64,000 nt of DNA from Unio delphinus. Its lineage: Eukaryota > Mollusca > Bivalvia > Unionida > Unionidae. The translations under genes and the position numbers were made by a program. Each line of letters starts with the position of its first letter. Position 1 is the first letter of the stretch. Shown piece after piece: positions 1,700 to 18,327 of this stretch. The stretch covers positions 6,184,001 to 6,248,000 of the forward strand of contig JAQISU010000118.1 of NCBI GenBank assembly GCA_029339505.1. The letters run 5' to 3'. The notes beneath the pieces were generated by a model. That model was not told the DNA's origin. It saw nothing but the letters and a program-made list of their open reading frames with translations, and did not search any database.

Positions 1700-1905
1700 A
1701 GCAGCAGAGAGGGTGAATCCTACAACATTTTTTGTTTTTATTTTTGATTATACCCCCTCCAAATAACACTAGACCCTTCTCGCGAATAACTAGAAAAAAA
1801 AATGAGTCTGGAAACATGAGATTCGCATTCGCGAATCATAAAATGTCGTCGTTGTCACTCACCCTCTCTGCTGCTATGGGTTAACCTGAATATTTTATCA
1901 AGTCC
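1700..1905. repeat. Left terminal inverted repeat of the Polinton
   Basis: About 206 bp matches the complement of 18117-18327 with very few differences: one substitution in the middle, a 5-bp insertion in the right copy and one single-base indel near the inner edge. It starts with AG, as Polinton termini do. The motif AGCAGCAGAGAGGGTGA at the tip recurs inverted at 1859-1875, so one TIR can fold on itself. AATAAA on the minus strand (1737-1742) could polyadenylate the leftmost gene. Confidence 0.92.
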
Positions 1906-1921
1906 TTAGGACGAAAATCAT

Positions 1922-3274
1922 TTATGATTTCACAAACAAGCTAATCGCTAACACCTCTTCTTGTAAATCAATTAGATTATTTGACTGGTCGGTGAGTTTG
2001 AAATTAATTCTCGTTAACGAATTATTATGGCATCGCATGTAGACAGGATTAATTGGGTTTTCAATAATTAAAAACCCTGGAGGAACTATTGGTGCAAATG
2101 AATACAAAATATATCCCTGCTGAGCTTGATTTGATCGTTCTAAATTTATTTGATAGCTTCCTTCGATCACATCACACACTAAATTAAGCGCAATCACCGT
2201 TGAAATATTCACGTTGAACGGAGCGATATGCCTACCACCACCATCTGGATCATTATTATGTTTGAGGAGGACAGTTGAATCTGATTTTTGTAGCGCTTTG
2301 ATGATATCGGTTTTAACAATTCTTACTAATTCATCAGCGTTGTATTTCGGAAACCTGAAATTACGCAGATTGTCTTTTGTGATATTGTAATCGGTTAGGA
2401 ATTGTTGTTTATTGTCGCTGTTGTCATTAATTATTGTTTGAATAATTAGTTCATAGATATATTTCATGTCGGATATAAGCTGATTTATTATTTCAACGTG
2501 TTTTTGCGATCTTGTTTTCCGTAGTTGTTCTAGTTGTGTGTCATATAATTGTTTAATCTCATTAAAATAACCACGGACGTCAGCTAGCGTAAATGAAATA
2601 GTAACAGATGACTCGGCTGTTCTTTTAATGATAAAATCCCATTGCAATGTGTCTTTGTTGGTGAATATAAATCTATCGCCGATTTTTCCTTTTCTTATAT
2701 CAGATAAATTATCTCGATAACTGGGATTGATTTCATGATATGATTGTACATCCGTGGTTAAGTCGGTGGTGGATTTTTCCGGTGGTAATTCAGGCCATCC
2801 CAGTACGGTTCTAATAGAACTTTGATAGATATCTACGACATAACCCTCTGTGCTTATTTCAATGGCAGATGATAGTGTTGGCTCATGAACCGTTATAGCT
2901 ATCTTTGATTCTTTTCCAGTAATCGATTTTATTCTACGCGCGAATTCGTTATTGATTTGTTCGATTTGGTATGATCCGGTTGGTATGGAAACAACGTTCC
3001 AGTCTGGGGTACCGTGGGGTTTATTCTTATTTGCAAATACCAGGGAATTATTCGGTTGTTGACCACCAAATGATTTTGACCTAATATTTGGCCAACTGTG
3101 GTATACTCGTAATTTTGCTAGCGCTATCTCCTTCACTGGGACCGGAGAGGGGAAATTCACACTGAATTCTGGATTCGTTGAGGTTAATGAGATCATGCTT
3201 GTTTGTACTGGTTTTGTGTTCTCCACTATTTGTTGAAGTAATTCCATCTGTGTTGTCATTGTTATTATACTCAT
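1922..3274 (-). CDS. Conserved Polinton structural-type protein (450 aa), candidate minor capsid/penton or vertex protein
   Basis: This 450-residue protein has no signal peptide or membrane span. Its N-terminal third (about residues 25-110) carries the pattern I associate with a widespread Polinton/adintovirus protein: a Leu-Thr-Ser-rich strand, then YHSWPNI, then IPTGSYQIEQIN. The middle (about 230-330) is helical and charged. The C-terminal quarter is conserved in the second element at the right end of the window, including HNNSLTRINF and the ending SLFVKS. It is the first gene inside the left TIR and the last of the minus-strand structural cluster. A role as minor capsid (penton) protein is inference. 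The first 194 bp overlap the upstream gene in another frame, so Met10 or Met27 could be the true start. Confidence 0.7.
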   Translation of the reverse strand: MSIITMTTQMELLQQIVENTKPVQTSMISLTSTNPEFSVNFPSPVPVKEIALAKLRVYHSWPNIRSKSFGGQQPNNSLVFANKNKPHGTPDWNVVSIPTGSYQIEQINNEFARRIKSITGKESKIAITVHEPTLSSAIEISTEGYVVDIYQSSIRTVLGWPELPPEKSTTDLTTDVQSYHEINPSYRDNLSDIRKGKIGDRFIFTNKDTLQWDFIIKRTAESSVTISFTLADVRGYFNEIKQLYDTQLEQLRKTRSQKHVEIINQLISDMKYIYELIIQTIINDNSDNKQQFLTDYNITKDNLRNFRFPKYNADELVRIVKTDIIKALQKSDSTVLLKHNNDPDGGGRHIAPFNVNISTVIALNLVCDVIEGSYQINLERSNQAQQGYILYSFAPIVPPGFLIIENPINPVYMRCHNNSLTRINFKLTDQSNNLIDLQEEVLAISLFVKS

Positions 3275-3734
3275 GTTGTATTTCTAATTTTGACATCGCA
3301 GAATTATATATATCTACCATCGCTGAAAACTCACTCTCTGATATAATTGTATCATCGAGCGATGACGATATCAATGAGGATAATTGCGAGTATGCAGTGG
3401 ACACAACATGAAATTGAATTATGTAGTCTTGTAGTTTCCGTTGGCTGCATGAGGATATTTTATTTGTGATTATTGAAATTATTCCAGCGATTGTTGTTGC
3501 CGCAGAAATGCAAATTGGAACAGCTATCGGGGCCATCATTGTCACTGAAGACAGTATAATACCAGCTCCAGTGATTACACCACTCACAGCGTACACAGTA
3601 ACATCAATTGCGGTAATTCTCCTGCGATATTTTTTAATTTTCAATTCATACTCCTCAGACTCCTCAGACAAGGTTTTGAGTCTAGTTTGATATTCTCTGA
3701 CCTGATCATAGCGATATTGCGATGATGAAATCAT
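3081..3734 (-). CDS. Coiled-coil protein with a hydrophobic hairpin, conserved Polinton type, function unknown
   Basis: The protein has 217 residues. A charged coiled-coil N-terminus (residues 5-42) is followed by a long apolar stretch (about 43-92) that looks like two membrane helices, then a second helical region with ISESEFSAMVDIYNSAM (about 132-148). This layout (coiled coil, Gly/Ala/Val-rich hairpin, then an SxxEF helix) recurs in Polinton gene sets, but I know no assigned function. A membrane-active virion component is possible. The last 65 codons overlap the start of the next gene out of frame and read as low-complexity Asn/Ser/Thr, so the C-terminus is doubtful. The start lies 31 bp from the end of the fibre-like gene. 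Confidence 0.65.
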   Translation of the reverse strand: MISSSQYRYDQVREYQTRLKTLSEESEEYELKIKKYRRRITAIDVTVYAVSGVITGAGIILSSVTMMAPIAVPICISAATTIAGIISIITNKISSCSQRKLQDYIIQFHVVSTAYSQLSSLISSSLDDTIISESEFSAMVDIYNSAMSKLEIQHEYNNNDNTDGITSTNSGEHKTSTNKHDLINLNESRIQCEFPLSGPSEGDSASKITSIPQLAKY

Positions 3735-3764
3735 TTTTTATTTTAACAACGCTAGCGTTTTCAA

Positions 3765-4887
3765 TTACGATTTACTTAAATCCGCTACGAATTCCACATA
3801 CCACGTTTTTGAGACCCTAACCAAATCTTTATCAGTAGATGTAATTGTAAACTTTTCAGTTGTATTCTTGTCGATGATCGTTGAAATCGTATTATTGACC
3901 CCGGATGAACTGGACGATGAAATATTAAATTGAGACAATGGTGTTACTAGTGTTAATCGATAAATACCCTTAACGGTTGCAGTGATATCTAATTTGTTGT
4001 TTGTAGGTGACCACTCAAATGATCCGTGTTGGATCGTGTATACTAAGTTGTTGGTTTTCTCATGAGGAATTTTTGTTTTTTCAATGGTTGTTATCATCCT
4101 CGAAAGATCACCTTTGACGGCTTCGATGACGTTTTTCGTCTCATCGATGGATTTTTTAATATCAGGGAGTTTCAGTTCAATTTTATCGAATGTAGTTCCA
4201 ATAAATTTATCAATGATATTTCTACGAAATGCGGTAAACTGTTTTATGTGTTCTTCGGTTTTAGATTGAAGTGTTGCTAGTTCTAACGCAGAATCGATGA
4301 GAGTTTTAAATCGATCTGTAATCGTCGAAAAAAGTACACCCGTTTGAGTTTACCCTGATCGGAAAATAACGCGATAGTATCCTCGATTGCATTTTGTTGT
4401 TTAACTAAAATATCATCCAGAGAAATATTACTGGTTTTCAATTTACCCTGATCGGAAAATAACGCAACGGTGTTCTCGATTGCGTTTTGTTGTTTAACCA
4501 AAATATCATCCAGAGAAATATTACTGGTTTTCAATTTACCCTGATCGGAAAATAACGCGATAGTATCCTCGATTGCGTTTTGTTGTTTAACCAAAATATC
4601 ATCCAGAGAAATATTACTGGTTTTCAATTTACCCTGATCGGAAAATAACGCGATAGTATCCTGGATTGCGTTTTGTTGTTTAACCAAAATATCATCCAGA
4701 GAAATATTACTGGATTTCAATTTACCCTGTTTGTCTTGAAATACAACTATTTCATTCGGGTCAACACTTGTTAAGTTCAACGTCTCAGCGATTTCATCTT
4801 TAATTTTTTTTTTATATCCTTGATAGAATCAGGAGTTGCAGTGTCATCGGGTTTGGGTTTCAGAGGTCTTCCCCAAATATCAATCAT
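3765..4887 (-). CDS. Fibre-like repeat protein, broken by two frameshifts
   Basis: The likely start is ATG at 4887, six bases after the protease stop, opening with MIDIWGRPLK. The frame is lost at a 10-base A run (4804-4813). It resumes in the frame holding four full 31-residue repeats (core NISLDDILVKQQNA, 93 bp each, about 4380-4740), is lost again at a short A run (4343-4345), and resumes in the frame that reads through to the stop at 3765. Both breaks are one base short. The last part has a helical stretch and then a beta-rich C-terminal domain (about 4097-3765) with an SSSSSS linker. A regular repeat shaft plus a C-terminal beta domain, next to protease and capsid genes, suggests a trimeric fibre or spike. 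That role is inferred from architecture only. Confidence 0.68.
4350..4745 (-). repeat. 93-bp tandem coding repeat (31 aa)
   Basis: Four near-identical 93-bp units plus a partial fifth lie within the fibre-like gene. Differences between units are few (for example Ile/Val and Asp/Asn swaps), which indicates recent amplification or homogenisation. The unit encodes DQGKLKTSNISLDDILV followed by an amphipathic helix ending in IALFS. Confidence 0.9.
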
Positions 4888-4893
4888 GATATT

Positions 4894-5307
4894 TTATATA
4901 TCTCTCTCTAAAAAGCGATTACTAGTGTAGTCATTTACGACAATGTGTGGTGATTTTCTAGATGCTGAAATAGCGTCAAGGACATTTAATACTTCACTGC
5001 CACATATTGGTGGGTCATTGATTTGTTGTGTTGGTAGCGTAGAATACCAAGTCTTCATTGGAAGGGTTTTTATATAACGCATAAACTCTTTTGGTGGGGC
5101 TAATCCATATGAATCAAAATAGACAATCCCACGTGGATCAATAGCGTATGCAACCCAGTGAGTTCCAGGTCCGGAGCTGTTATCGAGATTAATGATACCT
5201 GTTTCAGTTTTGTTTGGTTGATGTGGTAATTGATCTTTCATAAAAACACCTCTGAAATTTTTAATCACTAGTTTTTTAGCAGCATCCATTAAATCAAAAT
5301 TGGACAT
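4894..5307 (-). CDS. Adenain-like cysteine protease (maturation protease)
   Basis: This is a Ulp1/adenovirus-protease fold enzyme that matures capsid proteins in Polintons and adenoviruses. Starting at MSNFDLMD (5307; an alternative Met is at 5316) it has 137 residues. It contains FRGVFMKDQLP, then GPGTHWVAY with the catalytic His (50), YFDSYG with the acidic residue (Asp65), a Gln (94 or 95) before the active site, and PPICGSE with the nucleophile Cys102. All expected catalytic residues are present. The frame stays open upstream to 5433, but that part overlaps the pX-like gene repeats and is probably untranslated. The protease start sits just after the pX-like stop at 5328, as in a compact polycistronic layout. 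This gene looks intact. Confidence 0.9.
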   Translation of the reverse strand: MSNFDLMDAAKKLVIKNFRGVFMKDQLPHQPNKTETGIINLDNSSGPGTHWVAYAIDPRGIVYFDSYGLAPPKEFMRYIKTLPMKTWYSTLPTQQINDPPICGSEVLNVLDAISASRKSPHIVVNDYTSNRFLERDI

Positions 5308-5327
5308 TGGAACCATAGATTCCTCAA

Positions 5328-5879
5328 TTAATAAACCGTTCCTGGTAGTCTCAGGCCTGATCCGTGAACGGATCTCCCGCTGTACCATGAATACGGGGTT
5401 CCTGGTAGTCTTAGACCCTTTCCGCTGTACCATGAATACGGGGTTCCTGGTAGTCTTAGACCCTTTCCCTTTTTTATACCTTGACCTTTCTTCGGTTCAT
5501 AAGATTCAGCAATGCTCTGTACCGCTTTTGTTCCCAAGCCTCCAACTACCCCCAATGCGGCCGCTTTTGCTACTGCTGGGGCTGCTGCCGCAACCAATGC
5601 TGGTATTGCAGCAAACAACGGAAATATACCACCTGTTTTTATCATATTTTTGATAGCAGCCGCAGAGAGTGTGATCTGAACTCCTTTTTTATCCTTGAAA
5701 GCATCATTGAAATGTTTCACTTGACGAGTTGTCAGCGATAATTTATTTGCACCACCAGTCATTTGATTAGGTTTCAACGTGATTGTGGTTCCACATTTTT
5801 TAGCCGATTCTGATTGCAATTTTTTGATTTGACCAGGAGTTAACGCAACACTAATAACACTATATGACATGTTATACAT
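5328..5879 (-). CDS. pX-like minor virion/core protein with hydrophobic core segment
   Basis: The protein has 183 residues. The N-terminal half has LTPGQIKKLQ and ITLSAAAIKNMIKTGG, two related helix-turn units. Then follows a Gly-Gly-led apolar stretch (about 96-130, Ala/Val/Leu-rich), a basic GKG-rich linker, and repeated RLPGTPYSWYSG units. The GG + apolar + basic arrangement resembles the adenovirus pX (late L2 mu) family and is standard in Polintons between protease and capsid genes. The role is inferred: DNA condensation or a membrane-active virion component. The C-terminal repeats come from a 48-bp tandem duplication (about 5355-5465). The gene looks intact. Confidence 0.75.
   Translation of the reverse strand: MYNMSYSVISVALTPGQIKKLQSESAKKCGTTITLKPNQMTGGANKLSLTTRQVKHFNDAFKDKKGVQITLSAAAIKNMIKTGGIFPLFAAIPALVAAAAPAVAKAAALGVVGGLGTKAVQSIAESYEPKKGQGIKKGKGLRLPGTPYSWYSGKGLRLPGTPYSWYSGRSVHGSGLRLPGTVY
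5355..5465 (-). repeat. 48-bp tandem duplication at the 3' end of the pX-like gene
   Basis: A near-perfect 48-bp unit is present twice, with a third diverged partial copy. In the pX-like frame it adds GKGLRLPGTPYSWYS units, and the same DNA extends the open frame upstream of the protease. Confidence 0.85.
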
Positions 5880-5936
5880 AATTGATTGATTCTAAATCGT
5901 AAAACGATTCAATGGAAATATCCTTCGGATTTTCAA

Positions 5937-7357
5937 TTACATATTTTCCACTGGTGCATCTACCACTCTCATTCTTCCTCCAACACCTTCAAGTAGCATT
6001 GATTTATCACTGAGAATGACAGCAACCGCTCTATAATTAGCAGCACCACCAGGACGGGTTACACGGGCTCTAAAGTGTATATCAACGACAGATTGTCTCA
6101 CCAAGTCGAGATGTTCCAGCGAAAAGTAATAAATCGGATACAGATTTTTAAAATCATATTGTGATATTTGCAAACCGGTATCCACATTTTGATCACGTGC
6201 CATAAATGACAACAGGTTATGATAGACACGTGCAATATGATTTTGACCGTAATCAAGTTGCACATCTTCAGATGGTTCCTGTTGTCCGTTTATTCTCAGC
6301 GAGACTTCATTAACACCTAACTGATCAAATATCATATGACTTCGTTGTTGATTACCAACTCGATCATTATTCTGTAATGCAATAAATATATGACGTGGAG
6401 CTGAAACCCCTTGTTTTGATGCCAGGTGCCATGTGAATGTACCATTAACATTGTCTTGTTTAGTATCCGTAGTCACTGATAACCAACTCAATAACGACTT
6501 TCCTCCTTGGTCCATAAATGATAACAATTTTCCTTCTGCGGTAATTGATGGAGTTAACACTGGCATCCACAATGATAGTTTTGTTAAAACGACTTTACCA
6601 TCAGAACACCAGCATCACGCCATATTGCATCATTATCAGTACCCTTTCGTACAAGCGCTACTGTGTGTTTAGCTCCATAAATAACTTTTTGGACGTTTCT
6701 ACAGAATCCGAATATATGATGCAGTGGAATTGCACATGAAAATTGTCGACGCTGTCCTTGTAATGTTGATACACGTGTTGCGAATCCTAGATTGTAAGTA
6801 GTAATAGTATTTATGACATCAAAATCACCAGCTGGTCTTTTATATCCGGCTGGTGCTGGATTAACTGCAGTGGCTTGTGTTGCCTTGACTCTAGAATACG
6901 GGTTGTGTTCAGGGTGATCAGTAATATCCTTAGAAAACATCATAGATGGACCTGCTGATCTTGTATAATCATCAGAATATCTTGCTAACCCTATGATTGT
7001 TGTAGCCACATCAACTTCACGGTCAATGGATTCAATTTCTTTTCCATCAATGAGATATCTAGCGCTTTCAAATAACGCCATGATACCGTTATTAACAAAA
7101 CCAACTCGGGTAGTTTGGCTAATGTCATATGGAGGATCATTATGTGCAGCATCATTTGTTACAAGTTCTCCTTCTACTTCAATAAACGCTTCACAAGGTA
7201 AAAAGTATTTACTTGTATCATGAACTTGAAGTTCAATTCGTGATCGGAGATCGGGTTGTACTGCGTGATAAGAATAAAATTGAAAATCGCGTACAGAATC
7301 ATCTTTACGCACTGGGGCATCCATATCAAATGCTGGATCAGGTGACCTTTTGAACAT
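5937..7357 (-). CDS. Major capsid protein (double jelly-roll), one frameshift
   Basis: Translation starts at 7357 (MFKRSPDPAF). The first frame gives 257 residues and ends at 6584. The second frame gives about 215 residues and ends at 5937. The break is at a three-base A run (6594-6596) that is one base short. The first part contains the Polinton major-capsid signature: SRIELQVHDTSKYFLP, GFVNNGIMALFESARYLIDG, GKEIESIDRE and ARYSDDY. The second part contains LRINGQ, YDFKNLYPIYYFSL and a final strand-rich RVTRPGGAANYRAVAV. Total length (about 470) is on the small side for the family. It would form the icosahedral capsomers. Upstream lies the pVI-like gene, downstream the pX-like gene. Confidence 0.88.
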
Positions 7358-7411
7358 TTTATTCTATTTATCAGAGTCTAAATCGGATTTTCCATTTCAT
7401 CGTGAAAAACG

Positions 7412-7858
7412 CTAGCGTTTTCCTCGTGGTTTTTTAAAGCCACTTCCTGCTATCATGTTTGCTGTCATGTTATTTTGGTCCTCTTGATTTACCATCGACG
7501 CTAGTTTTTCATCTACTGCGTTATTTATTATTTTACTAACACTCGCAGGCATCTCTACTGTAGATGGCAATGGTACCTGTTTCTCTTTTCGTCTCACTAA
7601 TGATGTTATTTTATCCTTCGCAGTTGAAAACGCTTTCCCGGCAAGATCTCCAACAGTACTAATACCCTTATCACGAATAACATCAATGGCTTTCATTCCT
7701 AGTTGTTTAGCTAACGGCATCACTTTTGGGGCCGTTCTTGAAAAAAATCCTAAAATGGTATTACCTAAACCATCTCCGTAGTATGCTCTATAAACTGGAA
7801 ACCGCGAATTAACTACATAGACGGGGGTTGGTTTATCATGATTGTAGTGTATAATCAT
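7412..7858 (-). CDS. pVI/pX-type minor capsid protein candidate
   Basis: The protein has 148 residues. The N-terminal YRAYYGDGLGNTILGFFSR is a Tyr-rich segment followed by a Gly-x-Gly turn and an amphipathic helix. It continues with APKVMPLAKQLGMKAIDVIR and a long basic helical region, and ends in a basic tail GSGFKKPRGKR. This Gly-rich motif plus amphipathic helix, next to the major capsid gene, is the usual position and look of the Polinton minor capsid protein thought to correspond to adenovirus pVI or a related membrane-active protein. Homology is inferred from layout, not proven. The gene is intact. The stop is 54 bp from the capsid gene start. Confidence 0.68.
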   Translation of the reverse strand: MIIHYNHDKPTPVYVVNSRFPVYRAYYGDGLGNTILGFFSRTAPKVMPLAKQLGMKAIDVIRDKGISTVGDLAGKAFSTAKDKITSLVRRKEKQVPLPSTVEMPASVSKIINNAVDEKLASMVNQEDQNNMTANMIAGSGFKKPRGKR

Positions 7859-7892
7859 CTTGTTATAAAACTAGTAGTTTTTTAATTAGTAA

Positions 7893-8282
7893 TCAATCGC
7901 TGTAATAACCATGGGCATCTTTGTGATTTTCAACTAACTCAGCAATGAGTTCTCGATATACATTAATGTCCATGATACCACCGGCAAATAATCGTCTACA
8001 GATATCAGCTGCTTCATTAATTATTTCCGGTGAGTTATTTCCGGCTCGTTTCCCTCCGATGAGAACTTCTAACCGTGATATATCACTGAGAATGTTACCA
8101 GGACAAGTAACGCTAGTGTTTTCGACTATTCCGCTACCTAAATACTTATCTTCAGTTGACTCCTCTTCATCCTCTTTAACTACTATATTCATTTGATTTT
8201 TTTTACTCAATACTTTGTTTTTAAAACTCTCAAAATCATTGCGGTTACCTTCTGTGATTCTAAATCTACCACGGTTTGCCAA
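7893..8282 (-). CDS. Conserved small Polinton protein with C-terminal AGNNSPE helical motif
   Basis: The protein has 129 residues. It has a basic N-terminus (MANRGRFRITEG) and an acidic middle (KEDEEESTEDKYLGSG). The conserved C-terminal helical domain contains ISRLEVLIGGKRAGN, then NSPEIINEAADICRR and a second helix ending LIAELVENH. The pattern (RLE-x-LIGS/G-x-AGNNSPE-x-x-NEA) recurs in Polinton genomes, always as a short protein near the capsid genes. I know no function for it. The start overlaps the end of the upstream gene by 17 bp, which suggests co-transcription. Confidence 0.62.
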   Translation of the reverse strand: MANRGRFRITEGNRNDFESFKNKVLSKKNQMNIVVKEDEEESTEDKYLGSGIVENTSVTCPGNILSDISRLEVLIGGKRAGNNSPEIINEAADICRRLFAGGIMDINVYRELIAELVENHKDAHGYYSD

Positions 8283-8868
8283 GTATACTTTTTTTTATCC
8301 AATTCTCGTCGTTTTTTATATACTCTTTATACTCTTTGTTTACAGCTATTTCTCTTTTATCGAGTGAAAAATTCCGCGCGGTAAAGTTAATTAAATCATT
8401 GTCATCTTTATAACTTTTAATTATGTTGTATGCATAGTTGGTAATTATAGTTTGCGGTGAATACATTTTTGCTATAGTAACGTCTTCTTCCTCTTCTTGT
8501 TTTCTTGCAATAGCACCTAGTTCTTCTAGTACTTGCTTTTTTTTTTGTTGTTGCCGTGAAGTAGCTACTATATCCACTGGAAGCGTTTCTAAAGACTTTT
8601 TTGTTTGTTTAGTTCTTTTTGCTATTTTTTCTAACACAGGGAAAAAAGTCTCTTCTTGTTTTTTTCCTTGCTCAGAGAGTGTTGACACTATCTGTTTCGT
8701 TGTTGTAGTTATTGGTTTAAACAACTCTTCAGATCCCGCAGCAAAATCAGTCTGAAGACTCTGTCGTTCTTGCAGTTTATTCCTGACAGAGTCACGAATT
8801 GGTATAAATTTCTTAATTGCATCTAGTCGCTCACGAGCCAATCGGGTCGTTAATGCTTCATTGACCAT
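8266..8868 (-). CDS. Coiled-coil protein, Polinton-type, function unknown
   Basis: The 200-residue protein is highly charged and mostly helical. It begins with RERLDAIKKFIPIRD and has long coiled-coil stretches to about residue 130 (KKQEETFFPVLEKIAKR, QQQKKKQVLEELG). A Tyr/Asn/Lys-rich C-terminal third ends KKSILGKPW. Length and the opening IRDSVRNKLQERQ-like segment fit a conserved Polinton protein that precedes the AGNNSPE protein. It is the first gene of the left minus-strand cluster, preceded by a repeat-rich non-coding stretch that probably holds its promoter. Confidence 0.6.
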   Translation of the reverse strand: MVNEALTTRLARERLDAIKKFIPIRDSVRNKLQERQSLQTDFAAGSEELFKPITTTTKQIVSTLSEQGKKQEETFFPVLEKIAKRTKQTKKSLETLPVDIVATSRQQQKKKQVLEELGAIARKQEEEEDVTIAKMYSPQTIITNYAYNIIKSYKDDNDLINFTARNFSLDKREIAVNKEYKEYIKNDENWIKKSILGKPW

Positions 8869-8874
8869 TATTTG

Positions 8875-9362: not shown

Positions 9363-9364
9363 AA

Positions 9365-9721
9365 TCAAAATAGTTCATTTTCTTGAATTAACGCTCGTAA
9401 GTTTCTAATTTTAGAATTAACTTCCTTTTTCAATTCATATTCGTTACCCAATTCTTTTCGTATTCCTTCCACGATAGTATATAACGGAACAAACACATCT
9501 ACTTCACTGGAAAATGCAAGAGAGTCTCGAATAGAATTTTGAATTTTTTTGATGAGTGCATATTTCTTTGGTAACATATACTTGTTAGTGCTAACTCCGT
9601 ATTCTATATCCTGAAAATCCGACTTGATTTGATCAGGATTTAACCCATCTGACAATTTAATATTCTGATTTTTCAATTTTGCAATTTCAATTATGATGCT
9701 ATTCATATTATCAGAATTCAT
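9365..9721 (-). CDS. Hypothetical helical protein
   Basis: The 118-residue protein is Lys/Glu/Asn-rich and predicted to be helical, with no Cys and no recognised motif (segments such as LKKEVNSKIRNLRALIQ). Its AT-rich codon use resembles neighbouring Polinton genes and the frame is clean, so it is probably real. Right of it, upstream on its own strand, lies a 34-bp tandem repeat that could contain its promoter. Function unknown. Confidence 0.5.
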   Translation of the reverse strand: MNSDNMNSIIIEIAKLKNQNIKLSDGLNPDQIKSDFQDIEYGVSTNKYMLPKKYALIKKIQNSIRDSLAFSSEVDVFVPLYTIVEGIRKELGNEYELKKEVNSKIRNLRALIQENELF

Positions 9722-9775
9722 ATATGATAATACATATTTCTAATTCATTTTTCAAAAATAAAAGAGCCGTTAATA

Positions 9776-9942
9776 TTTTAAAAATTCAGTCTGTATATAT
9801 AAATATCTTTTTTAAAAATTCAGTCTGTATATATAAATATCTTTTTTAAAAATTCAGTCTGTATATATAAATATCTTTTTTAAAAATTCAGTCTGTATAT
9901 ATAAATATCTTTTTTAAAAATTCAGTCTGTATATATAAATAT
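9776..9942. repeat. 34-bp tandem repeat, about 5 copies
   Basis: Near-perfect head-to-tail units contain AAAAATTCAGTCTGTATATA and end in TAAATATCTTTTTT. Each unit carries a TATATA stretch. It lies inside the Polinton, just upstream of the gene at 9365-9721. Confidence 0.88.
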
Positions 9943-10180
9943 AAATGCAGACAAAAATAAATAACAACCATGATGAGCGGTTATCAGTCATTTGGCCCCC
10001 TTGATATAGGCCACTGTGTCTTTCATAGGGTTCTTTCTATGAGTATTTCCATTTTTTTTCTGAGATATCTTCGATCTCGATTTGACACTATTTGGCCGGT
10101 AATTCATTTTTGAACACCATACGGGGCTACCCAAATGTGACGGAGAGCTAATTACATCCATGGATGTTATTTATTTTAGG

Positions 10181-10445: not shown

Positions 10446-10446
10446 C

Positions 10447-10615
10447 AACATATACTTAATTAAGGACAGCACAAATACCGTATATATTTCCACTCGAGTG
10501 TTGTGGCAAACTGTAGGTATACATATACTTAATTAACTTAATTAAGGACAGCACAAATACCGTATATATCTCCATTCAGATTGTAGGTATACATATACTT
10601 TATTAACTTAATTAA
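10447..10615. repeat. Direct repeat of about 80 bp (two copies) with TATA-like core
   Basis: Two copies share ACATATACTTAATTAA, then GGACAGCACAAATACCGTAT followed by ATAT, and TGTAGGTATACATATACTT. It lies between the small Cys protein and the foldback element and is probably regulatory. Confidence 0.65.
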
Positions 10616-10684
10616 GGGTGGATTATAATTCAATGATGATGTAATGATGATGGGACGGCACAGACATCACAAATATGAAACGAC

Positions 10685-10828: not shown

Positions 10829-10847
10829 AGCTTTAAACCTTTCATTT

Positions 10848-11775
10848 AGTATATAAGGTGACTAATACAGCAGCGTCAATCCACAGAGTGTGTTATTTTA
10901 TTTTCTTGAATTACTTGTTAATGGTGCTTCACAGTATTTAAATGAGACAGAATATTTGCATAAAGCACTAAAAAAAGAATATAATCGTTTGAAAACCTTT
11001 TATATTTGATTTCTTTTCTAATTAATTATAGCCCAAGCCGCTGAATCACAATTTAGGGGGAAATAACCCACGCCATACTGTAATGTAATTTTTATAGATG
11101 TAGCCGCTCTCTAGGGGCATTTGTACATCTTTTATAGGTGCCATGTCGGCATCCTCTTTTTTTTAAAAATCTTTATTCAATATTTACATATTAAATTATA
11201 CAAATGATAGTCAACCCCCCCCCCCCAGCACCCGTCATTCATACACACATTTTCACCACACTCACTACATACAGACATTTAAAAACACTTATATTTACAC
11301 ATAATAGTAGAAACATATATAAGTAGGTGGGAGGGGTTGTTATTCCCTCCCTTATCAACCCGACACCATCTAAGGGAGAGAGTATATAAAGGGAATTAAT
11401 ACAGCAATCCGCAAGGTATGCTATTTTATTTTCTTGAATTACTTATTAATGGTGTTTCACAGTATTTAAATGAGACAGCATATTTGACTTAAACACTAAA
11501 ACAAAGAATATAATTGTTTGAAAACATTTCTTTTCTTACAAAACAATGCCCAGCCGCTGAATCGCAATAACCCATAAAACAAGTTAACACAATCTAAGGG
11601 AGAAAGTATACACGTGTGTTATCCTGTAACGCCTGCATCTCCGGATCACATCCTATGTTTATGAAATACGCATTAATCGCACGTGAGACAGAATATTTGA
11701 CTTAAACACTAAAAAAAAAGAAAATATTTCTTTTCCTATAAAACAATACCCAGCCGCTAAATCACAATGATAACT
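10848..11775. repeat. Duplicated TATA-bearing cassette in the Polinton non-coding island
   Basis: About 190 bp at 10850-11045 recurs at 11380-11585, with a third shorter copy at about 11680-11775. Each full copy starts with GTATATAA, then AATACAGCA, a conserved TTTTATTTTCTTGAATTACT, CACAGTATTTAAATGAGACA, and an A-rich part ending in CAGCCGCTGAATC. No open frame spans the copies. TATATAA at the same relative place suggests duplicated promoters or a small non-coding transcript. Between the copies is a poly-C run (about 11217) and a minus-strand AATAAA (11172-11177). Confidence 0.6.
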
Positions 11776-12121
11776 CCCTTGGTTATATCCATTGGTTATA
11801 TTTAAGAGTTGTCTCCGTTGGTGTTATAGACATACGAAAATCGAATTTTTTGTCCTGTCTCTTTTGAAATGGTAAAGAATTATTCTGAGAATCGGAATCA
11901 ATATAACCATCCTTGATTCTATTATTCAAGAATTAAGTTATCATTCAACACCTACAGAGAACATTAAATGTTCACATATTAATCTATCTATCTGACTGAT
12001 CAAATACCACAAATCCAACTGGATTCTTCAATCTGCGGTTTCTGATAATACCATTACGGAATGCTTCATAATTAACAAGCACGGGTGAGGTCTGAATTCT
12101 TGGTTCATTTGTATAATAACA

Positions 12122-12463
12122 CTATTTTTCTAATTCATTGTTTGGTTTAATTATAAGTCTCTGTATATAATCTTGAGGAGTCTTTATGATTTTGTCATCG
12201 TTGGGGTCAATGACAGTATTTTTTATTCTTTTATCATAATAGCGTTTTAGTTCCCTGTATCGTTTGCCGCCACACCTAACACATAATTGCGACCTTCCCC
12301 TAACCCCAACCCCACATCGAATACAGGGTAACGGACCAAGGCTTCCACGACGAAAGCTTTGCATATGATACCAACAGAATTCATTTCTGCATGATTTGTT
12401 ACACGGTGTCACTGATCCAATCATAAGCCATTTGCAATGATTCATTATACTTAAATCTTTCAT
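12122..12463 (-). CDS. Cys-rich, putative zinc-binding protein adjacent to the polymerase
   Basis: The protein has 113 residues. The Cys/His spacing is CKW...CNKSCRNEFCWYH, then PCIRCGVG and LCVRCGGKRY, enough ligands for two zinc sites. The rest is basic (RYRELKRYYDKRIKN). The gene is divergent from the polymerase with only 24 bp between the two starts, so they must share a bidirectional promoter. From memory, a similar Cys-rich small protein accompanies the same polymerase/helicase family in some fungal genomes (unverified). The role may be nucleic-acid binding in replication, which is inferred. Confidence 0.6.
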   Translation of the reverse strand: MKDLSIMNHCKWLMIGSVTPCNKSCRNEFCWYHMQSFRRGSLGPLPCIRCGVGVRGRSQLCVRCGGKRYRELKRYYDKRIKNTVIDPNDDKIIKTPQDYIQRLIIKPNNELEK

Positions 12464-12487
12464 TTAAATACTTGTTTTAATTATAGT

Positions 12488-15400
12488 ATGGAGGAGTTCG
12501 AGAGATTATCGAAAATTAAGCCCTGGAAAAGTGTTCAATTCAATCTTGATAGAGTTTCTGATACACCAAAGAATAAAATTCTTGATAGAACCTTGATTAG
12601 TAAAATCAGAGACTGTTTTAATGAATTCAAGCGTGATGGGGCAGCTCATTGTTGGTCAACATTTCAAATTGATGGTGTTGTTGACGCTACCATGAATGAT
12701 GAAAAAGCAGCAGTGATAATCTCACGTCTTGGGGAAGAAAGAAATTTTTTTCGAATAAAATTCCTTATCCGTGATAATGGAAAATGGATCATTAGGGACA
12801 AATACGAGCCTATTCTTAAAGACAAAAAAACTGTCACTGTGACTCAGGATTCAAAACCAGGAATTTTGACTGGAATTGATAAACCCTACTACGAAAGATC
12901 TTATCCTGTCACAGCAGTTGTTTACGGGATCTATCCGCTCAATGAAAAACCTGATATTTCAAAACTAGCACCCATGAAATATTCGACAGGGCTCAATTGT
13001 GTAGCAGCACGAATAATAGAACACTTCACAAATGCGTCCCGGGGAAATAAACTAACTGATCTAAGACGAAAAAAAATAACCGAATGGGAACTGACAGTGA
13101 AACAGCATGGGGCAACAATTCAAGATATAGCCAAATTAGAAACATCATTGAGATTTCCAATATCGGTAAGGACAATCACCGGAGAAGTATTATACGAATC
13201 GAAATATAATAAAAATGGAACCCCAATACAGATTATTGATCATAACGAACACGCGTGGTCATCTGCAGTAACAATATTCCCACGGGATAGAACCGTAAAA
13301 TATCTATCCCAAACTCTGTTTGGAACCGAAGAGTTTTTTTCAGAGCAGAAATTATTTGATGCTATTTACCATTTGAGTAAAAAAGATCCTGTGTCAGTGT
13401 GGCTATTTCATAGTACTTCAGACGAAGAATGTAGATTTGATCAGTTTGTAAGGCCCAACGGAGAATTGTACCGTACTGAAGAACTGCATAATCAAATGAA
13501 ACAACTAGCTAGTGAGTTTTCTCCCCAGAGTTCTCTGGGGGAAGACAACGATCAATTATTAGCAAACTGTTTTACACTTCCATCAGTTGTAGCACATTTT
13601 GCTAGGAAGAAAAACGCGTGGAAACCAACACGAAGTGAGTTCTTATCAGAGGTCAAATTGTCTTGTCTTGAATACGGCCATGGAGGATTATGGAATACAA
13701 AATACACCGCTGATACCGTTATTTCCGTTGATATGATTGCGTGTTATCCAGGAAGTTTTCTTGGGTATGGAGAATGCGAGAAATATTTCAAACGATTTGG
13801 ACACCCTACACACGAAATGACCCGTGTTGCTAATAATGGACCACTGCCACATTTCGATTTAACCGGATTCGCTTGTGTAGTATCATTTGAAATGGCTACA
13901 GGACTTCATCCGTGTAGTTATCTTTGGATTGGTAAACACATGTCTGAAAAACACTGGATGCCAATAGTGTTATTACGGTATATGCTTGATTGTAAGATGT
14001 TAAAATCATTAATTGTCAGTGAAGCAATTATATCCTATCGAGCACAGAAATCAGTCTGGTTACCACAACCTGATCTAGAAAAAATAATTAGCGAAGAGCG
14101 AAAACTGTTTCCAAATTTCAGTGAACAACAAATCATGGATTGGTCCCAACAGTTATTTGAAATCAGAAACAATGAAGCAAAAGACCTTGGACGAAGAATA
14201 ATCGGTAAATTTACCCAAGGTGGTAAAGATGATAATACGAGATATTCTTCACGATTGATTATAGACAATGTTGAATACGATTTTGTAATCAAAGATTTAA
14301 CGAATAGGGGCTTATATGTCAATCGTAAGGACGCATTTATGTCCGATGGAACCAAATTGGGTACAATTGTTACTTACACTGATGGATACAATCCGCAGTA
14401 CACACATTTGAGAGCTTCTATGCTTGGTTATGCTTCTATCAATCTGTTTTCAATGATCAATAGATTTCCTACCACCGCAGTTAGAGTTGCTACTGACTCA
14501 TTTTACATAAATAGCAAAATGGCTGATTTTAAGGCTACTGGCAACGAGAATTGGGGGTCATGGAGAATTAAGAAGGAAATGCCTCATGATTATATTCCAT
14601 CAGCAGATGTTACCATTGAAAATAATTACTTAGAAAGCAATCAGTGTTCAGAATTTTCTAGTGCACCACCGATTTCTGATCCAATCTGTAGATATAAAAC
14701 AGTTTATTTAAACGGTTGTGGCGGGTCAGGAAAAACAACCCGGGCAATTGAGTTATATCGTGGGAAATCAAACATGATTGTGCTAACACCGACTCACAGA
14801 CTTGCAAGAGAAATGATACAGAGAGGGGTAAATGCATGCACTTATCATAGTTTCTTTAGATGGAAGGGAGATAAATGGACTACTGAGCGCATGGGAGAGA
14901 AATTTATTCCTGAAATTATCATGTGGGATGAAATAGACACAGTGTCAGAAGATGTCTTAAAAATATTTCTTGAGTGGTTGTTATTGAAGAATACAAAAGT
15001 CGTCATGTGCGGTGATTACGGCCAACCACCACCATTTGTCGGTGCATCTCCCCATGAATGGCTAAAGGGTTTTGTAGACTATTATGAAGAAATTGATACT
15101 GATCATAGATCACTTGATAATGAATTAAAAGAGTTTAAGAAATTAATTAGATTACAACCGGATAGAATCCAGTGTAAAATAGCCCGTGAAATAATTTCGG
15201 AAACTCCCATGAATGAGTTCTGGGAAATGTGGAGACCAAACGATTTGATCATTGCAAGTAGAAAAATAGTCAGGGATACACTTCAGATGAAGTTATTTGA
15301 ATTGCATAAACAAAAATTTGCAACACTTCCAGTGCCCCTCTGTTATAGGCCATCGGATACACGAAAACAGAACATCGAAGTTGATATTCCAGGCCTGACA

Positions 15401-15796
15401 GAGTCAGGGCGTGAAAAGCAGATTCTCGTATTAAATGATATTGTGCTGGTTGATATCAATGTCGTTGAAGATGCATTGCGTGCTAATAAATCCCCGTGGA
15501 CGCTAGGTTATGCAGCAACAATACACTCTTCACAGGGATTGACTATATCGGATACAATTGTTTGGATGGTAGATAATCGCATAGAATGGTCGAATTTAGT
15601 CTATCTCGCAGTGTCTAGAGTACGAAAAATAAATCAGCTTCGAAGAATTGTCGTTGGCGAAGCCAGTGGCGATGATGAAATCATTGGCGATGATAATGAC
15701 ACCACAATAGATGATATTATTGATAAAAAACTCTCCGGTTACAAACAACAAGACAAAAAAAAAAACAACGAGAATTTGATATTGATGCTGAATTAA
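12488..15796 (+). CDS. Family B DNA polymerase fused to an SF1 helicase; C-terminal HNH domain out of frame
   Basis: The protein has 1102 residues. The N-terminal half has a conserved LNCVAARIIEHF region (about 169-180). Next comes the polymerase: motif A VISVDMIACYPGSF (Asp415), a KFTQGG motif-B-like segment (574-579), and motif C VATDSFYI (Asp670; the usual first Asp of DTD is Ala). The helicase follows: Walker A GCGGSGKT (743-750), LTPTHRLA, Walker B IIMWDEID (811-818), motif III GDYGQPPP (842-849), motif V TIHSSQGLT (1011-1019), motif VI VYLAVSRVR (1038-1046). It copies the element and probably unwinds the template. The frame ends shortly after an A11 run at 15755-15765. An HNH domain continues in the neighbouring frame to 15981, so the true product is probably longer. 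A Pol-helicase fusion is unusual among classical Polintons. Confidence 0.92.
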   Translation: MEEFERLSKIKPWKSVQFNLDRVSDTPKNKILDRTLISKIRDCFNEFKRDGAAHCWSTFQIDGVVDATMNDEKAAVIISRLGEERNFFRIKFLIRDNGKWIIRDKYEPILKDKKTVTVTQDSKPGILTGIDKPYYERSYPVTAVVYGIYPLNEKPDISKLAPMKYSTGLNCVAARIIEHFTNASRGNKLTDLRRKKITEWELTVKQHGATIQDIAKLETSLRFPISVRTITGEVLYESKYNKNGTPIQIIDHNEHAWSSAVTIFPRDRTVKYLSQTLFGTEEFFSEQKLFDAIYHLSKKDPVSVWLFHSTSDEECRFDQFVRPNGELYRTEELHNQMKQLASEFSPQSSLGEDNDQLLANCFTLPSVVAHFARKKNAWKPTRSEFLSEVKLSCLEYGHGGLWNTKYTADTVISVDMIACYPGSFLGYGECEKYFKRFGHPTHEMTRVANNGPLPHFDLTGFACVVSFEMATGLHPCSYLWIGKHMSEKHWMPIVLLRYMLDCKMLKSLIVSEAIISYRAQKSVWLPQPDLEKIISEERKLFPNFSEQQIMDWSQQLFEIRNNEAKDLGRRIIGKFTQGGKDDNTRYSSRLIIDNVEYDFVIKDLTNRGLYVNRKDAFMSDGTKLGTIVTYTDGYNPQYTHLRASMLGYASINLFSMINRFPTTAVRVATDSFYINSKMADFKATGNENWGSWRIKKEMPHDYIPSADVTIENNYLESNQCSEFSSAPPISDPICRYKTVYLNGCGGSGKTTRAIELYRGKSNMIVLTPTHRLAREMIQRGVNACTYHSFFRWKGDKWTTERMGEKFIPEIIMWDEIDTVSEDVLKIFLEWLLLKNTKVVMCGDYGQPPPFVGASPHEWLKGFVDYYEEIDTDHRSLDNELKEFKKLIRLQPDRIQCKIAREIISETPMNEFWEMWRPNDLIIASRKIVRDTLQMKLFELHKQKFATLPVPLCYRPSDTRKQNIEVDIPGLTESGREKQILVLNDIVLVDINVVEDALRANKSPWTLGYAATIHSSQGLTISDTIVWMVDNRIEWSNLVYLAVSRVRKINQLRRIVVGEASGDDEIIGDDNDTTIDDIIDKKLSGYKQQDKKKNNENLILMLN

Positions 15797-15981
15797 TAAT
15801 TACTCTGAAGCAGCAACAGAATAATCACTGCGCAAGTTGCAATTGTATAATGCGTTGGCAGTATTCGGATAAGGATCCTCGCCAATTCACCGTTGACAGA
15901 AAAAATAACAATCTCGGTCATGTCAGAAATAATGTGATGTTGACTTGTCTTGAGTGCAATAGACGCAAGGGTGCTAGTTAA
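15766..15981 (+). CDS. HNH endonuclease-like C-terminal domain of the polymerase gene (frameshifted off)
   Basis: In the frame one base behind the polymerase, 15766-15981 encodes CASCNCIMRW, FTVDRKNNNLGH and NVMLTCLECNRRKG, with stop TAA at 15979. The two CxxC pairs, the DR and the GH plus N are the hallmarks of an HNH nuclease. There is no start codon suited to independent translation, and the upstream join is an A11 run (15755-15765) one base short. I read it as the third domain of the polymerase-helicase protein. The last 8 bp overlap the convergent integrase gene. The nuclease might nick DNA during replication or integration, which is inference. Confidence 0.8.
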   Translation, partial: QREFDIDAELIITLKQQQNNHCASCNCIMRWQYSDKDPRQFTVDRKNNNLGHVRNNVMLTCLECNRRKGAS

Positions 15982-16927
15982 GCCCATGCGGTGGTAATTG
16001 AGTATCCTCAGGTATCACTTGTAATTGTTGTCTAGTAAAACCCCGTTGAGGGGCAGTTGAATCCAGTTTATAGATTGGAAGTCTACCCGTAGATCGTGTT
16101 ATACTAGATATCTTATGTGCAGTAATACTCCAATTAGGATCAGTAGCCCTTTTTGTGCCACCCTCAAGCTCTCCTGGTTCGTATAAGTACCTCACAATGA
16201 CATTACTACCAAGAATTGGTTGGGAAACGCTAAAATCTTTTTGAATTTCCATTTCAGGTATTGACTTCTTTTTAATCGCATTGATAGGTTTCATGTTGAT
16301 GGTTCTAGTAATCTCGTTATTCAGTGCAGTAATCACAGCTGGTAACCTTTTAACCCATTCACGGGATCTTTTTTCTTGGATGAATTCTTTTGCGTATTGA
16401 TATCCAAATAACCGCTCAGCAAGGGTTTTATTAAACCGTTCTACAATGGCCTGATCACGATGTAGCGCAGTATGTCCTCGTCTGATAGTGACTTTATGAT
16501 TTTTCATTATTGATAACACTACACCCTGAAATTCTTTGCCGCGATCAATTTGTAATAGATTTGGCCAGTGCAGAGGACTCCTTCGATAAATCCTTTCAAA
16601 TGCAGAAGCCACTTCAGTGGCTGATTTTGTTTTTAACGGTTCTGCTTCTTTGTATCGACTTGCAATATCAACTACGGTTAATGCGTATTTGTAACCACGA
16701 TCATGTGGCAGAAATAATAGATCAGCCTGATGAACTTCATTAGGAACTGTCACATCAAAATGCGAGAATTGAATTTGTTTAGGCGGTGGTAGATAAATTT
16801 GCCATAGTGCCTGTTTGGATAACCAATGAGCCGCAGTGGTTTTTTTCACTTTTGCAGCGCTAGCGAGTTTATGGATTGCTGATTTACCCCTCCAGTATCC
16901 TCTTGGGGAATAATAAATAGATTCCAT
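15974..16927 (-). CDS. Retroviral-type (rve/DDE) integrase
   Basis: The likely start is MESIYYSPRG (16927); the frame is open to 16948. The protein has 317 residues. An N-terminal segment is helical (GKSAIHKLASAAKVKK). The RNase-H-like core has catalytic Asp69 (HQADLLFL), Asp128 (LLQIDRGKEF) and Glu163 (QAIVERFN), with 34 residues between the last two, the expected DDE spacing. The C-terminal domain reads VIVRYLYEPGELEGG ... RGFTRQQLQVIP, an SH3-like or basic tail. No clear chromodomain is seen, unlike many animal Polintons. It cuts and joins the TIR ends to the target. The gene is convergent with and overlaps the polymerase/HNH end, and starts just after the PLA2-like stop at 16935. It looks intact. 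Confidence 0.92.
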   Translation of the reverse strand: MESIYYSPRGYWRGKSAIHKLASAAKVKKTTAAHWLSKQALWQIYLPPPKQIQFSHFDVTVPNEVHQADLLFLPHDRGYKYALTVVDIASRYKEAEPLKTKSATEVASAFERIYRRSPLHWPNLLQIDRGKEFQGVVLSIMKNHKVTIRRGHTALHRDQAIVERFNKTLAERLFGYQYAKEFIQEKRSREWVKRLPAVITALNNEITRTINMKPINAIKKKSIPEMEIQKDFSVSQPILGSNVIVRYLYEPGELEGGTKRATDPNWSITAHKISSITRSTGRLPIYKLDSTAPQRGFTRQQLQVIPEDTQLPPHGLN

Positions 16928-16934
16928 GTTGTTA

Positions 16935-17464
16935 TTAATTACCAGCACCTAACATCAATTTACTTTTCATAGCCGATTTTATCAAAAAGGAAGCCAATTT
17001 TTCTTTGAAAGATTTATCAGAAATAGCATTTAACGCATGAATTAATTTCACATCTGCTAGATGCCTGTGCTGCAGATTACTGCTTTTATAAGATACATCA
17101 TGAAGGTGACAGGCCTTATCAATAGCGTTTATTGGTTCCTCACCGGGTCGGGGCTGATTTTGATCATTGAGTCTGATATCAAGTCTTGTTCCCGGTCCAC
17201 AGTAGCTATATCCTGGAAGGTGCTTTTCTCCAGGGTATTTTGCCCATGGGGTTCCAGGGAGTTTAGTTAGCTTGGCTGCGATATCACCTCCTCGTTTTTT
17301 TTTAAAGGTTCCTTGAGTTCCTTGGGTTTAGAAACAAATCTAAATTTCTTTGTACTACATTGTACGCATTTACCAGAAAGCGCTGATCGGTTATTTTTAG
17401 TTGTAATCGTCGTCAAGTCATCTGTGCCAGTACGTTTTTTACACCTCACATAATATAGATCCAT
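16935..17464 (-). CDS. Zinc-ribbon + phospholipase A2-like protein, one frameshift
   Basis: The first part (17464 to the A9 run at 17295-17303) starts MDLYYVRCKKRTGT and has GKCVQCSTKKFRF, a short zinc ribbon of the DUF5679 look. The expected first Cys is Tyr5, so only three of four ligands remain. The neighbouring frame, one base off, continues with GYSYCGPGTRLDIRL (calcium-loop type), INAIDKACHLHDVSY (catalytic His-Asp pair) and HRHLADVKLIHAL to the stop at 16935. This matches the parvovirus VP1/PLA2-like domain found in Polintons, where the ribbon and PLA2 parts are usually one protein. PLA2 activity would act on membranes during virion traffic (family knowledge). The start is 5 bp from the divergent ATPase gene. 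Confidence 0.8.
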
Positions 17465-17469
17465 AATTT

Positions 17470-18141
17470 ATGTATAGAGATATGAATATAATTGATTTTT
17501 CAGCGACTAAAACAAGAGAACCAGTGAAGCATCATGCAGCGCTACCAAACTCTATCCGCGCAATTATAATCGGGCCATCTGGATCCGGTAAAATGCAATT
17601 GTTGCTCAATTTAATAATGAGATGGATGAAGTGGGATAAGTTGTATTTAATTGCCCCTAGCGTAGATGATCAACGATGCTATCAAGTGCTAAAAGATTTT
17701 AATGAAAACGCTTCAGAGATTGCCGGCGAGGATGTTATTGAATTTATAACCGATATTGACGAGGCGCCATCCGTGAATGACCTCGATGGAAGTATCAACA
17801 ATTTAGTGGTATACGACGATGTCATGTTAGATAATCAAAAAAATCCTGCTAGAATATTTTCCCGAGGCAGGCATAAAAACACTGATGTGATCTATGTCAC
17901 TCAACGCTACACTCAGATTCCAAAAGTGATTAGAGATAACTGTAATATGCTTGCTGTATTCAACGGCGTTGATACACATACGCTACGAAATATTTGGCAG
18001 ACATGGTGTTCTGATATGGACTTCAATCAATTTAGAAATTTCTTTAGTCATGCTCAGTCTGCCCCACACGGATTTGTAACAATAAATTTACATGACCCTC
18101 GAACACGATATCGTATCGGACTTGATAAAATATTCGGTTAA
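17470..18141 (+). CDS. FtsK/HerA-type genome-packaging ATPase (A32-like), Walker A Thr replaced by Met
   Basis: The protein has 223 residues. Walker A is IIGPSGSGKM (32-42); the position after Lys41 is Met42 where Thr or Ser normally binds Mg-nucleotide. Walker B is NLVVYDDVML (Asp116-Asp117). It continues with FSRGRHKNTDVIYVTQR, the sensor/arginine region of A32-family packaging ATPases. It would pump the element's DNA into capsids. The gene is divergent from the zinc-ribbon gene with a 5-bp gap. Its last codons (ending DKIFG) and stop lie inside the right TIR. The ATG to ACG difference would be a single C-to-T transition, so the loss may be recent. Otherwise it is full length. Confidence 0.9.
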   Translation: MYRDMNIIDFSATKTREPVKHHAALPNSIRAIIIGPSGSGKMQLLLNLIMRWMKWDKLYLIAPSVDDQRCYQVLKDFNENASEIAGEDVIEFITDIDEAPSVNDLDGSINNLVVYDDVMLDNQKNPARIFSRGRHKNTDVIYVTQRYTQIPKVIRDNCNMLAVFNGVDTHTLRNIWQTWCSDMDFNQFRNFFSHAQSAPHGFVTINLHDPRTRYRIGLDKIFG

Positions 18142-18327
18142 CCCATAGCAGCAGAGAGGGTGAGTGACAACGACGTTGCGACATTTTATGATTCGCGAAT
18201 GCGAATCTCATGTTTTCAGACTCATTTTTTTTTCTAGTTATTCGCGAGAAGGGTCTAGTGTTATTTGGAGGGGGTATAATCAAAAATAAAAACAAAAAAT
18301 GTTGTAGGATTCACCCTCTCTGCTGCT
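18117..18327. repeat. Right terminal inverted repeat of the Polinton
   Basis: This is the inverse of 1700-1905. The internal inverted copy of the terminal motif begins at 18147. The inner edge runs into the 3' end of the packaging ATPase gene, so its last codons and stop (TAA at 18139-18141) are TIR sequence. AATAAA at 18285-18290 on the plus strand lies about 145 bp after that stop and is a plausible poly(A) signal, mirrored by the one in the left TIR. Confidence 0.92.

What the first reader, a model, noticed from the sequence alone, without database searches (positions are those of the whole stretch)
1700..18327. Complete Polinton with a polymerase-helicase-HNH replication protein
Integrase, capsid, protease, ATPase, PLA2-like and TIRs are all recognisable, but the polymerase is fused to a full SF1 helicase and probably an HNH nuclease. 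Classical animal Polintons carry a stand-alone protein-primed PolB. From memory, a very similar polymerase/helicase/HNH layout and the accompanying Cys-rich protein and integrase exist in arbuscular-fungal genomes (unverified). If correct, this is a distinct Polinton lineage that spans animals and fungi.
Basis: partly seen in the sequence, partly recalled or inferred. Interest (0 to 1): 0.85.

Follow-up and report, generated by a model that had tools for sequence, protein, structure and literature searches.

The report
Polinton-like virus with polymerase-helicase replicase
A 16.6-kb virus-like mobile element in what is probably a freshwater-mussel genome copies itself with one giant polymerase-helicase protein of a kind described so far mainly from protist viruses, and it sits there in many near-identical copies beside ordinary Polintons.

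The parts
1695..1699 (.). left target-site duplication CTCTA
   Evidence: identical 5 bp at 18328-18332; 5-bp duplications also in 3 of 3 further copies with both ends resolved, of 10 tried
18328..18332 (.). right target-site duplication CTCTA
1700..1886 (.). left TIR; begins AGCAGCAGAGAGGGTGA and carries an inverted copy of that 17-mer at 1859-1875
18136..18327 (.). right TIR; inner copy of the 17-mer at 18147-18163
   Evidence: 20 of 20 other copies fetched end at the same terminus and have the inner copy
1922..3274 (-). 450-aa ORF; possibly minor capsid (penton), weak
   Evidence: BLASTP E 0.028 in a single comparison to a penton-like ORF (so judged by eye) of the host's canonical Polinton; no Pfam match over cut-off
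3081..3734 (-). 217-aa ORF, unknown
   Evidence: no Pfam match over cut-off
3765..4349 (-). 194-aa open stretch, unknown
   Evidence: no Pfam match over cut-off
4283..4828 (-). 181-aa open stretch made largely of 93-bp repeats
4894..5433 (-). adenain-like cysteine protease (C5)
   Evidence: Pfam Peptidase_C5 E 0.0036, below cut-off; H...D...Q...C order read by eye
5328..5879 (-). 183-aa ORF with LRLPGTPYSWYSG repeats, unknown
6584..7363 (-). major capsid protein, N-terminal part (double jelly roll)
   Evidence: PF21738 E 2.6e-7; 92 relatives, freshwater mussels closest among the named
5937..6614 (-). major capsid protein, C-terminal part, in another frame (broken in this copy)
   Evidence: PF21738 E 1.6e-7; one frame in 3 of 3 other copies whose fetched piece spans the junction, of 6 fetched
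7412..7858 (-). 148-aa ORF; a Potamilus protein has a relative of it (by eye) fused to the capsid N-terminus
   Evidence: P0088 in alignment A3
7893..8294 (-). unknown ORF
8266..8868 (-). 200-aa ORF, unknown
9365..9721 (-). 118-aa ORF, unknown
12122..12463 (-). 113-aa Cys-rich (zinc-ribbon-like by eye) protein, divergent from the replicase gene
   Evidence: no Pfam match
12488..15796 (+). pPolB-S1H replicase (1102 aa): vOTU-type Cys171/His252-255, palm motif A (D415), K574, motif C (ATDS, D670), SF1 helicase 730-1055
15769..15981 (+). HNH / endonuclease VII-like domain, in a different frame from the ORF before it
   Evidence: frame translation; the same domain of relatives P0009 and P0001 matches PHROG endonuclease VII E 4e-15 and 9.8e-9
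15974..16927 (-). rve (DDE) integrase, no chromodomain match
   Evidence: PF00665 E 4.8e-8
16935..17327 (-). phospholipase A2-like protein
   Evidence: PF08398 E 2.6e-12
17470..18141 (+). A32-type packaging ATPase; allele of another subfamily (mosaic)
   Evidence: PF04665 E 1.8e-10
63378..64000 (+). left end of a second, diverged copy running off the window
   Evidence: 80% over 413 alignment columns to 1847-2259

Best explanation
An endogenous, recently amplified polinton-like virus of the pPolB-S1H ('Tlr1-like helicase') type with an rve integrase, living in the genome of an animal, probably a unionid bivalve. Proposed cycle: the integrated copy expresses the large replicase; the vOTU-type domain may cleave it; the protein-primed palm copies the linear element from its TIR ends while the fused Pif1/RecD2-like helicase opens the duplex; the C-terminal HNH/EndoVII-like domain, when in frame, trims or resolves branched intermediates. 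The integrase inserts the product with a 5-bp stagger. ATPase, protease, capsid and PLA2 genes suggest packaging and endosomal escape of particles. Shown: gene content, predicted domain folds, TIR/TSD integration at many sites, recent multiplication, recombination between subfamilies. Inferred: protein priming, polymerase activity, cleavage, junction resolution, virion formation.
Against: In this copy capsid and HNH frames are broken, and 30 of 42 scored host copies, this one included, lack the long frame, so the nuclease part may be dispensable. No relative was found in IMG/VR with replicase or capsid queries (pattern-based scans), so there is no evidence of extracellular virus. No Pfam PolB match in any of 21 members. 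The vOTU fold was not recovered by structure search; it rests on residues only. No terminal-protein domain was identified. No Tlr1 or transpoviron sequence was compared directly.
Confidence: 0.8

Rival explanations
1. An ordinary animal Polinton that exchanged only its replication gene (module swap) for a pPolB-S1H replicase.
For: Gene content apart from the replicase is Polinton-like; the capsid belongs to PF21738, which Hydra proteins also match, at 27-34% identity to the window's N-terminal part apart from two short matches of 50-53%. The ATPase gene is demonstrably swapped between subfamilies, so modules do move.
Against: In the same genome the pPolB Polintons looked at have integrases 27-29% and an ATPase 25% identical to this element's (4 and 3 of 4 copies gave a match). 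In the one locus tested, the ORFs at the capsid position gave no significant BLASTP hit and no PF21738 match. Their integrase has a chromodomain, this one shows none. Hence no compared module, not only the replicase, is close to them.
Confidence: 0.2
2. A capsid-less lifestyle: a transposon that no longer makes virions, multiplying only inside the genome. (Not exclusive of the best explanation's replication part.)
For: Capsid frame broken here; no relative found in viral contigs.
Against: Capsid halves are in one frame in 3 of 3 other copies that span the junction; 150 of 150 scored ATPase matches are open over 224 aa. Exchange of ATPase alleles fits co-replication or re-entry, though gene conversion inside the genome would also do it.
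Confidence: 0.35
3. The polymerase palm is dead and only the helicase works (the 2016 reading of the published family).
For: The DTD pattern of motif C is absent from 37 of 37 long relatives; the title of Krupovic 2016 speaks of an inactivated polymerase (seen only as a reference).
Against: The 2024 preprint withdraws this because active polymerases also lack that Asp. A loose motif A pattern is kept in 36 of 37 long relatives, and no other polymerase was recognised among the element's ORFs scanned.
Confidence: 0.15
4. Contamination or assembly artefact (for example fungal or symbiont DNA).
For: Some database relatives lie in bins labelled bacterial or archaeal (P0049, P0239, L001).
Against: Copies on dozens of contigs with different flanks, and target duplications; capsid relatives in named mussel genomes.
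Confidence: 0.01

Closest known systems
Tlr1-like helicase (pPolB-S1H) PLVs and the Tlr1 element of Tetrahymena (PMC11071308, section 10 and passages read)
   Same: protein-primed palm, motif C without first Asp, vOTU-type Cys/His, C-terminal SF1 helicase, HNH or GIY-YIG at the C-terminus; Tlr1 also has rve integrase, ATPase and capsid genes (PMC4028283, passages read)
   Different: animal host; PLA2-like gene; adenain-like protease (weak), which PMC4028283 says Tlr lacks; Tlr1 ends in GIY-YIG according to PMC12721341 (passages read). No Tlr1 sequence was at hand for direct comparison.
Transpovirons (PMC11071308, passages read)
   Same: pPolB-S1H replicase on linear DNA
   Different: structural (capsid) module lost; they live with giant viruses of the mimivirus group
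Canonical Polinton/Maverick, as present in this same genome (for example L022/L023)
   Same: rve integrase, A32-type ATPase, size class
   Different: 1357-aa pPolB with PF03175, chromodomain integrase, BIR-domain protein; integrase and ATPase 25-29% identical; presumed capsid ORFs without a match to this capsid or its Pfam family
OmPLV of Oxyrrhis marina (PMC12721341, passages read)
   Same: SF1 helicase fused to pPolB
   Different: helicase N-terminal, full exonuclease, tyrosine recombinase, no rve integrase; described there as an independent fusion

Membership tests
pPolB-S1H (Tlr1-like helicase) elements | protein-primed PolB palm | tested here: met
pPolB-S1H (Tlr1-like helicase) elements | C-terminal SF1 helicase in the same ORF | tested here: met
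pPolB-S1H (Tlr1-like helicase) elements | motif C lacks the first Asp | tested here: met
   VATDS in the window; DTD pattern in 0 of 37 long relatives
pPolB-S1H (Tlr1-like helicase) elements | vOTU domain upstream of the palm | tested here: inconclusive
   Cys and His motifs in 37 and 34 of 37; no OTU fold among listed matches
pPolB-S1H (Tlr1-like helicase) elements | C-terminal HNH or GIY-YIG nuclease (in some members) | tested here: met
   HNH pattern in frame in 29 of 37 long relatives and, by frame length, in 12 of 42 host copies; out of frame in the window
pPolB-S1H (Tlr1-like helicase) elements | phylogenetic placement with Tlr1/PLV/transpoviron helicases | not tested
   no named sequence of these was obtained; best viral fold match H6WBE3 is unnamed
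Canonical Polinton/Maverick | stand-alone pPolB (Pfam DNA_pol_B_2) | tested here: not met
   no PF03175 match in the window protein or 21 members, while a Polinton of the same genome matches at 9.8e-44
Canonical Polinton/Maverick | rve integrase, A32 ATPase, DJR capsid, TIRs | tested here: met
Canonical Polinton/Maverick | 6-bp target duplication (recalled, from no call) | tested here: not met
   5 bp in 4 of 4 copies with both ends resolved, one of them uninformative; the host Polintons' own duplication was not measured
Canonical Polinton/Maverick | adenain-like protease | tested here: inconclusive
   C5 E 0.0036, below cut-off

The most novel reading that the evidence does not exclude
A whole lineage of endogenous viruses, distinct in every module from Polintons and defined by a polymerase-helicase-EndoVII replicase, infects and multiplies in animals and arbuscular fungi today, exchanging capsid and packaging genes among co-resident subfamilies; the EndoVII-like tail is a working junction or flap nuclease of the replisome, not a homing endonuclease.
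Probability: 0.3. Interest if true: 0.8.

Novelty: new variant of a known kind. Interest (0 to 1): 0.58.

Why it matters
It moves the pPolB-S1H replication system from protist viruses and giant-virus plasmids into animals, and its replicase into fungi, as a complete, integrating and recently multiplied element, in a genome that also holds intact classical Polinton polymerases. The two protein-primed systems, stand-alone and helicase-fused, can thus be compared inside one host, and the question whether the palm of the fusion is active becomes directly testable.

Tried and rejected
Tried without result: Pfam PolB and Rfam (gathering threshold) on the window; viral-contig scans. Paper searches: polinton with mollusc and arbuscular, 0 papers; polinton, mussel and capsid, 4 listed; Maverick and arbuscular mycorrhizal, 9 listed; freshwater mussel genomes, 10 listed of 184. 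Of these I saw only the listings with the start of the abstracts. Absence in print is claimed only for the ten searches made. Krupovic 2016 and the adintovirus paper are not held.

The vOTU fold did not appear among the listed structure matches; this does not exclude it. A programmed frameshift before the HNH was considered and ranked low, because relatives and some host copies have one open frame.

A preference of pPolB Polintons for inserting into these elements was considered. Of 24 pPolB copies looked at, 3 adjoin pPolB-S1H element sequence at their left end (L022, L024, L042), and 2 more have such sequence within about 2.2 kb (L032, L036); a 40-bp match in L046 was not counted. In 2 of the 24 the boundary was not properly found (L030, L040). 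Since 3 of 20 pPolB-S1H copies also have own-kind sequence within about 450 bp of right flank, and no genome-wide background was measured, no preference is claimed.

Equal longest-contig lengths, spotted by eye in the tables, suggest integrase and replicase on one contig in four cases (P0172/P0003, P0195/P0025, P0204/P0056, P0237/P0026); this is inference. No such coincidence was convincing for capsid hits.
Full report
What is there. The element spans 1700-18327 (16,628 bp). Its TIRs are about 190 bp (149-nt arms 99% and 40-nt arms 100% complementary), flanked by CTCTA on both sides. The 17-mer at the tip of each TIR recurs, inverted, about 160 bp inside; 7 matches with up to 3 mismatches lie in the window against 0.07 expected. 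Pfam identifies the DJR capsid in two ORFs, rve integrase, PLA2-like protein and A32 ATPase above cut-off and the C5 protease below it.

The nuclease. The HNH-like stretch lies at 15769-15981 in a different frame. The same domain of P0001 and P0009 matches PHROG endonuclease VII with E 9.8e-9 and 4e-15, and Pfam HNH, below cut-off, with 0.021 and 0.00081. A piece of the window itself that I scanned (15736-15900, cut short of the domain's end) gave no HNH match (third protein). A preprint reads such tails as homing endonucleases from intein invasions (PMC11071308, section 10 read). Presence in 29 of 37 long relatives, Elysia included, and in one shorter fungal protein (P0061) suggests to me a retained function, possibly branch resolution; this is inference. 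Against it, 30 of 42 scored host copies, this one included, lack the long frame.

Host genome. The window lies in a held genome of 2.505 Gb. DNA search with 1501 bp of the polymerase part scored 40 of 4713 first-look candidates, the window included, all 99-100% identical. The replicase protein search scored 42 of 65,971 candidates: 22 of 42 without internal stop, 12 of 42 with a frame of 1170-1180 aa, 7 of these 12 without stop. The ATPase search scored 150 of 48,392: all 99-100% identical and open over 224 aa. Only the best candidates are scored, and candidates are not copies. In 20 copies fetched on the right side, 20 of 20 stop at the TIR terminus with different neighbours, and all 20 have the inner 17-mer. 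Of 10 left ends sought, 3 were in the fetched kilobase; with the window this gives four copies with both ends, each with a 5-bp duplication (CTCTA, TTATC, TGCTA, and the uninformative AAAAA). By motif, helicase and HNH share a frame in 5 of these 20 copies, lie in different frames in 8, and one of the two was not recognised in 7. Capsid halves share a frame in 3 of 3 copies whose piece spans the junction, of 6 fetched; 2 pieces held the C-part only and 1 none.

Mosaic structure. From 15,900 to 17,400 the window is on average 95-99.8% identical per 100 bp to 20 copies chosen by their polymerase. From 17,400 to 18,200 it falls to 66-98%, with six of eight 100-bp steps under 90%, while those copies stay 95-99.5% alike; it rises again in the TIR. 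Four copies chosen by the window's ATPase are 95-100% identical to it in just that stretch and 88-99% before it; three of the four differ strongly in the TIR stretch that follows (57-60%). All four carry replicase, integrase and PLA2 matches in the same order. So the window copy combines modules of two subfamilies. Capsid identity also varies: 96-98% in one copy, 84-88% for the C-part in four others whose polymerase DNA is 99-100% identical.

Classical Polintons in the same genome. PF03175 finds 150 stretches in 75 scored candidates, many with open frames of 1356-1362 aa. One (L022/L023) has pPolB (9.8e-44), a chromodomain integrase (Chromo 1e-7), an A32 ATPase and a BIR-domain protein (1e-23). 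Integrases are 27-29% (4 of 4 copies) and ATPases 25% (3 of 4 copies with a match) identical to this element's. In L028 the two ORFs at the capsid position, so judged by place and size, gave no significant BLASTP hit to this capsid and no PF21738 match; one touches a capsid N-terminus model below cut-off, E 0.073.

Relatives elsewhere. 70 replicase relatives: named ones are Elysia (sea slug, 4), Diversispora (2), Cetraspora and Racocetra (arbuscular fungi), one EukProt protein, and one Thiodiazotropha bin, probably bivalve contamination; the rest are unnamed. In a quick tree the window groups with P0001-P0004 (support 100) and the four fungal rows form one group (100); the program warns of long branches meeting. 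Capsid N-part: 92 relatives, the closest named being Sinanodonta woodiana (53-81%) and Potamilus (42-49%), then Hydra. The window falls with all six mussel rows in a set of 27 (100), again with a long-branch warning. The host is therefore probably a unionid bivalve, inferred from the element alone; it is not named. A paper on protists reports that cnidarian capsids were the only metazoan ones outside the main Maverick-Polinton cluster (PMC10120064, passages read), which may fit this capsid's Hydra affinity.

Verdict. The architecture is known (Tlr1-like helicase, pPolB-S1H). Its occurrence as an amplified, integrase-bearing animal element beside classical Polintons, with replicase relatives in arbuscular fungi, was not found in the ten paper searches made. 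I call it a new variant of a known kind.

Noticed in passing
63378-64000: Left end of a second, diverged copy of the same family in the same orientation, 80% over 413 columns, with a stop in its first ORF.
   Followed up: partly
17400-18150: The ATPase gene of this copy is an allele of another, very abundant subfamily; identity changes sharply on both sides.
   Followed up: yes
1700-1886 and 18136-18327: Each TIR is itself bounded by inverted copies of a 17-mer, present in 20 of 20 other right ends; meaning unknown, perhaps paired integrase sites.
   Followed up: partly
L022:2379, L024:2373, L042:2235: Classical pPolB Polintons inserted inside copies of this element family.
   Followed up: partly
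L022:8918-9466: Host's classical Polinton carries a BIR (inhibitor of apoptosis) domain protein, E 1e-23.
   Followed up: no
18733-20468: Probable remnant of a non-LTR retrotransposon (ORFs judged by eye) just right of the element.
   Followed up: no
L001; P0049; P0239: Replicase or integrase relatives sit in bins labelled Diapherotrites and Thiodiazotropha; the many-stop reading of L001 suggests a degraded eukaryote contaminant.
   Followed up: partly
4250-4807, 9742-9945, 10454-10617: Tandem repeats of 93 and 34 bp and short repeats spaced 70-82 bp inside the element.
   Followed up: no
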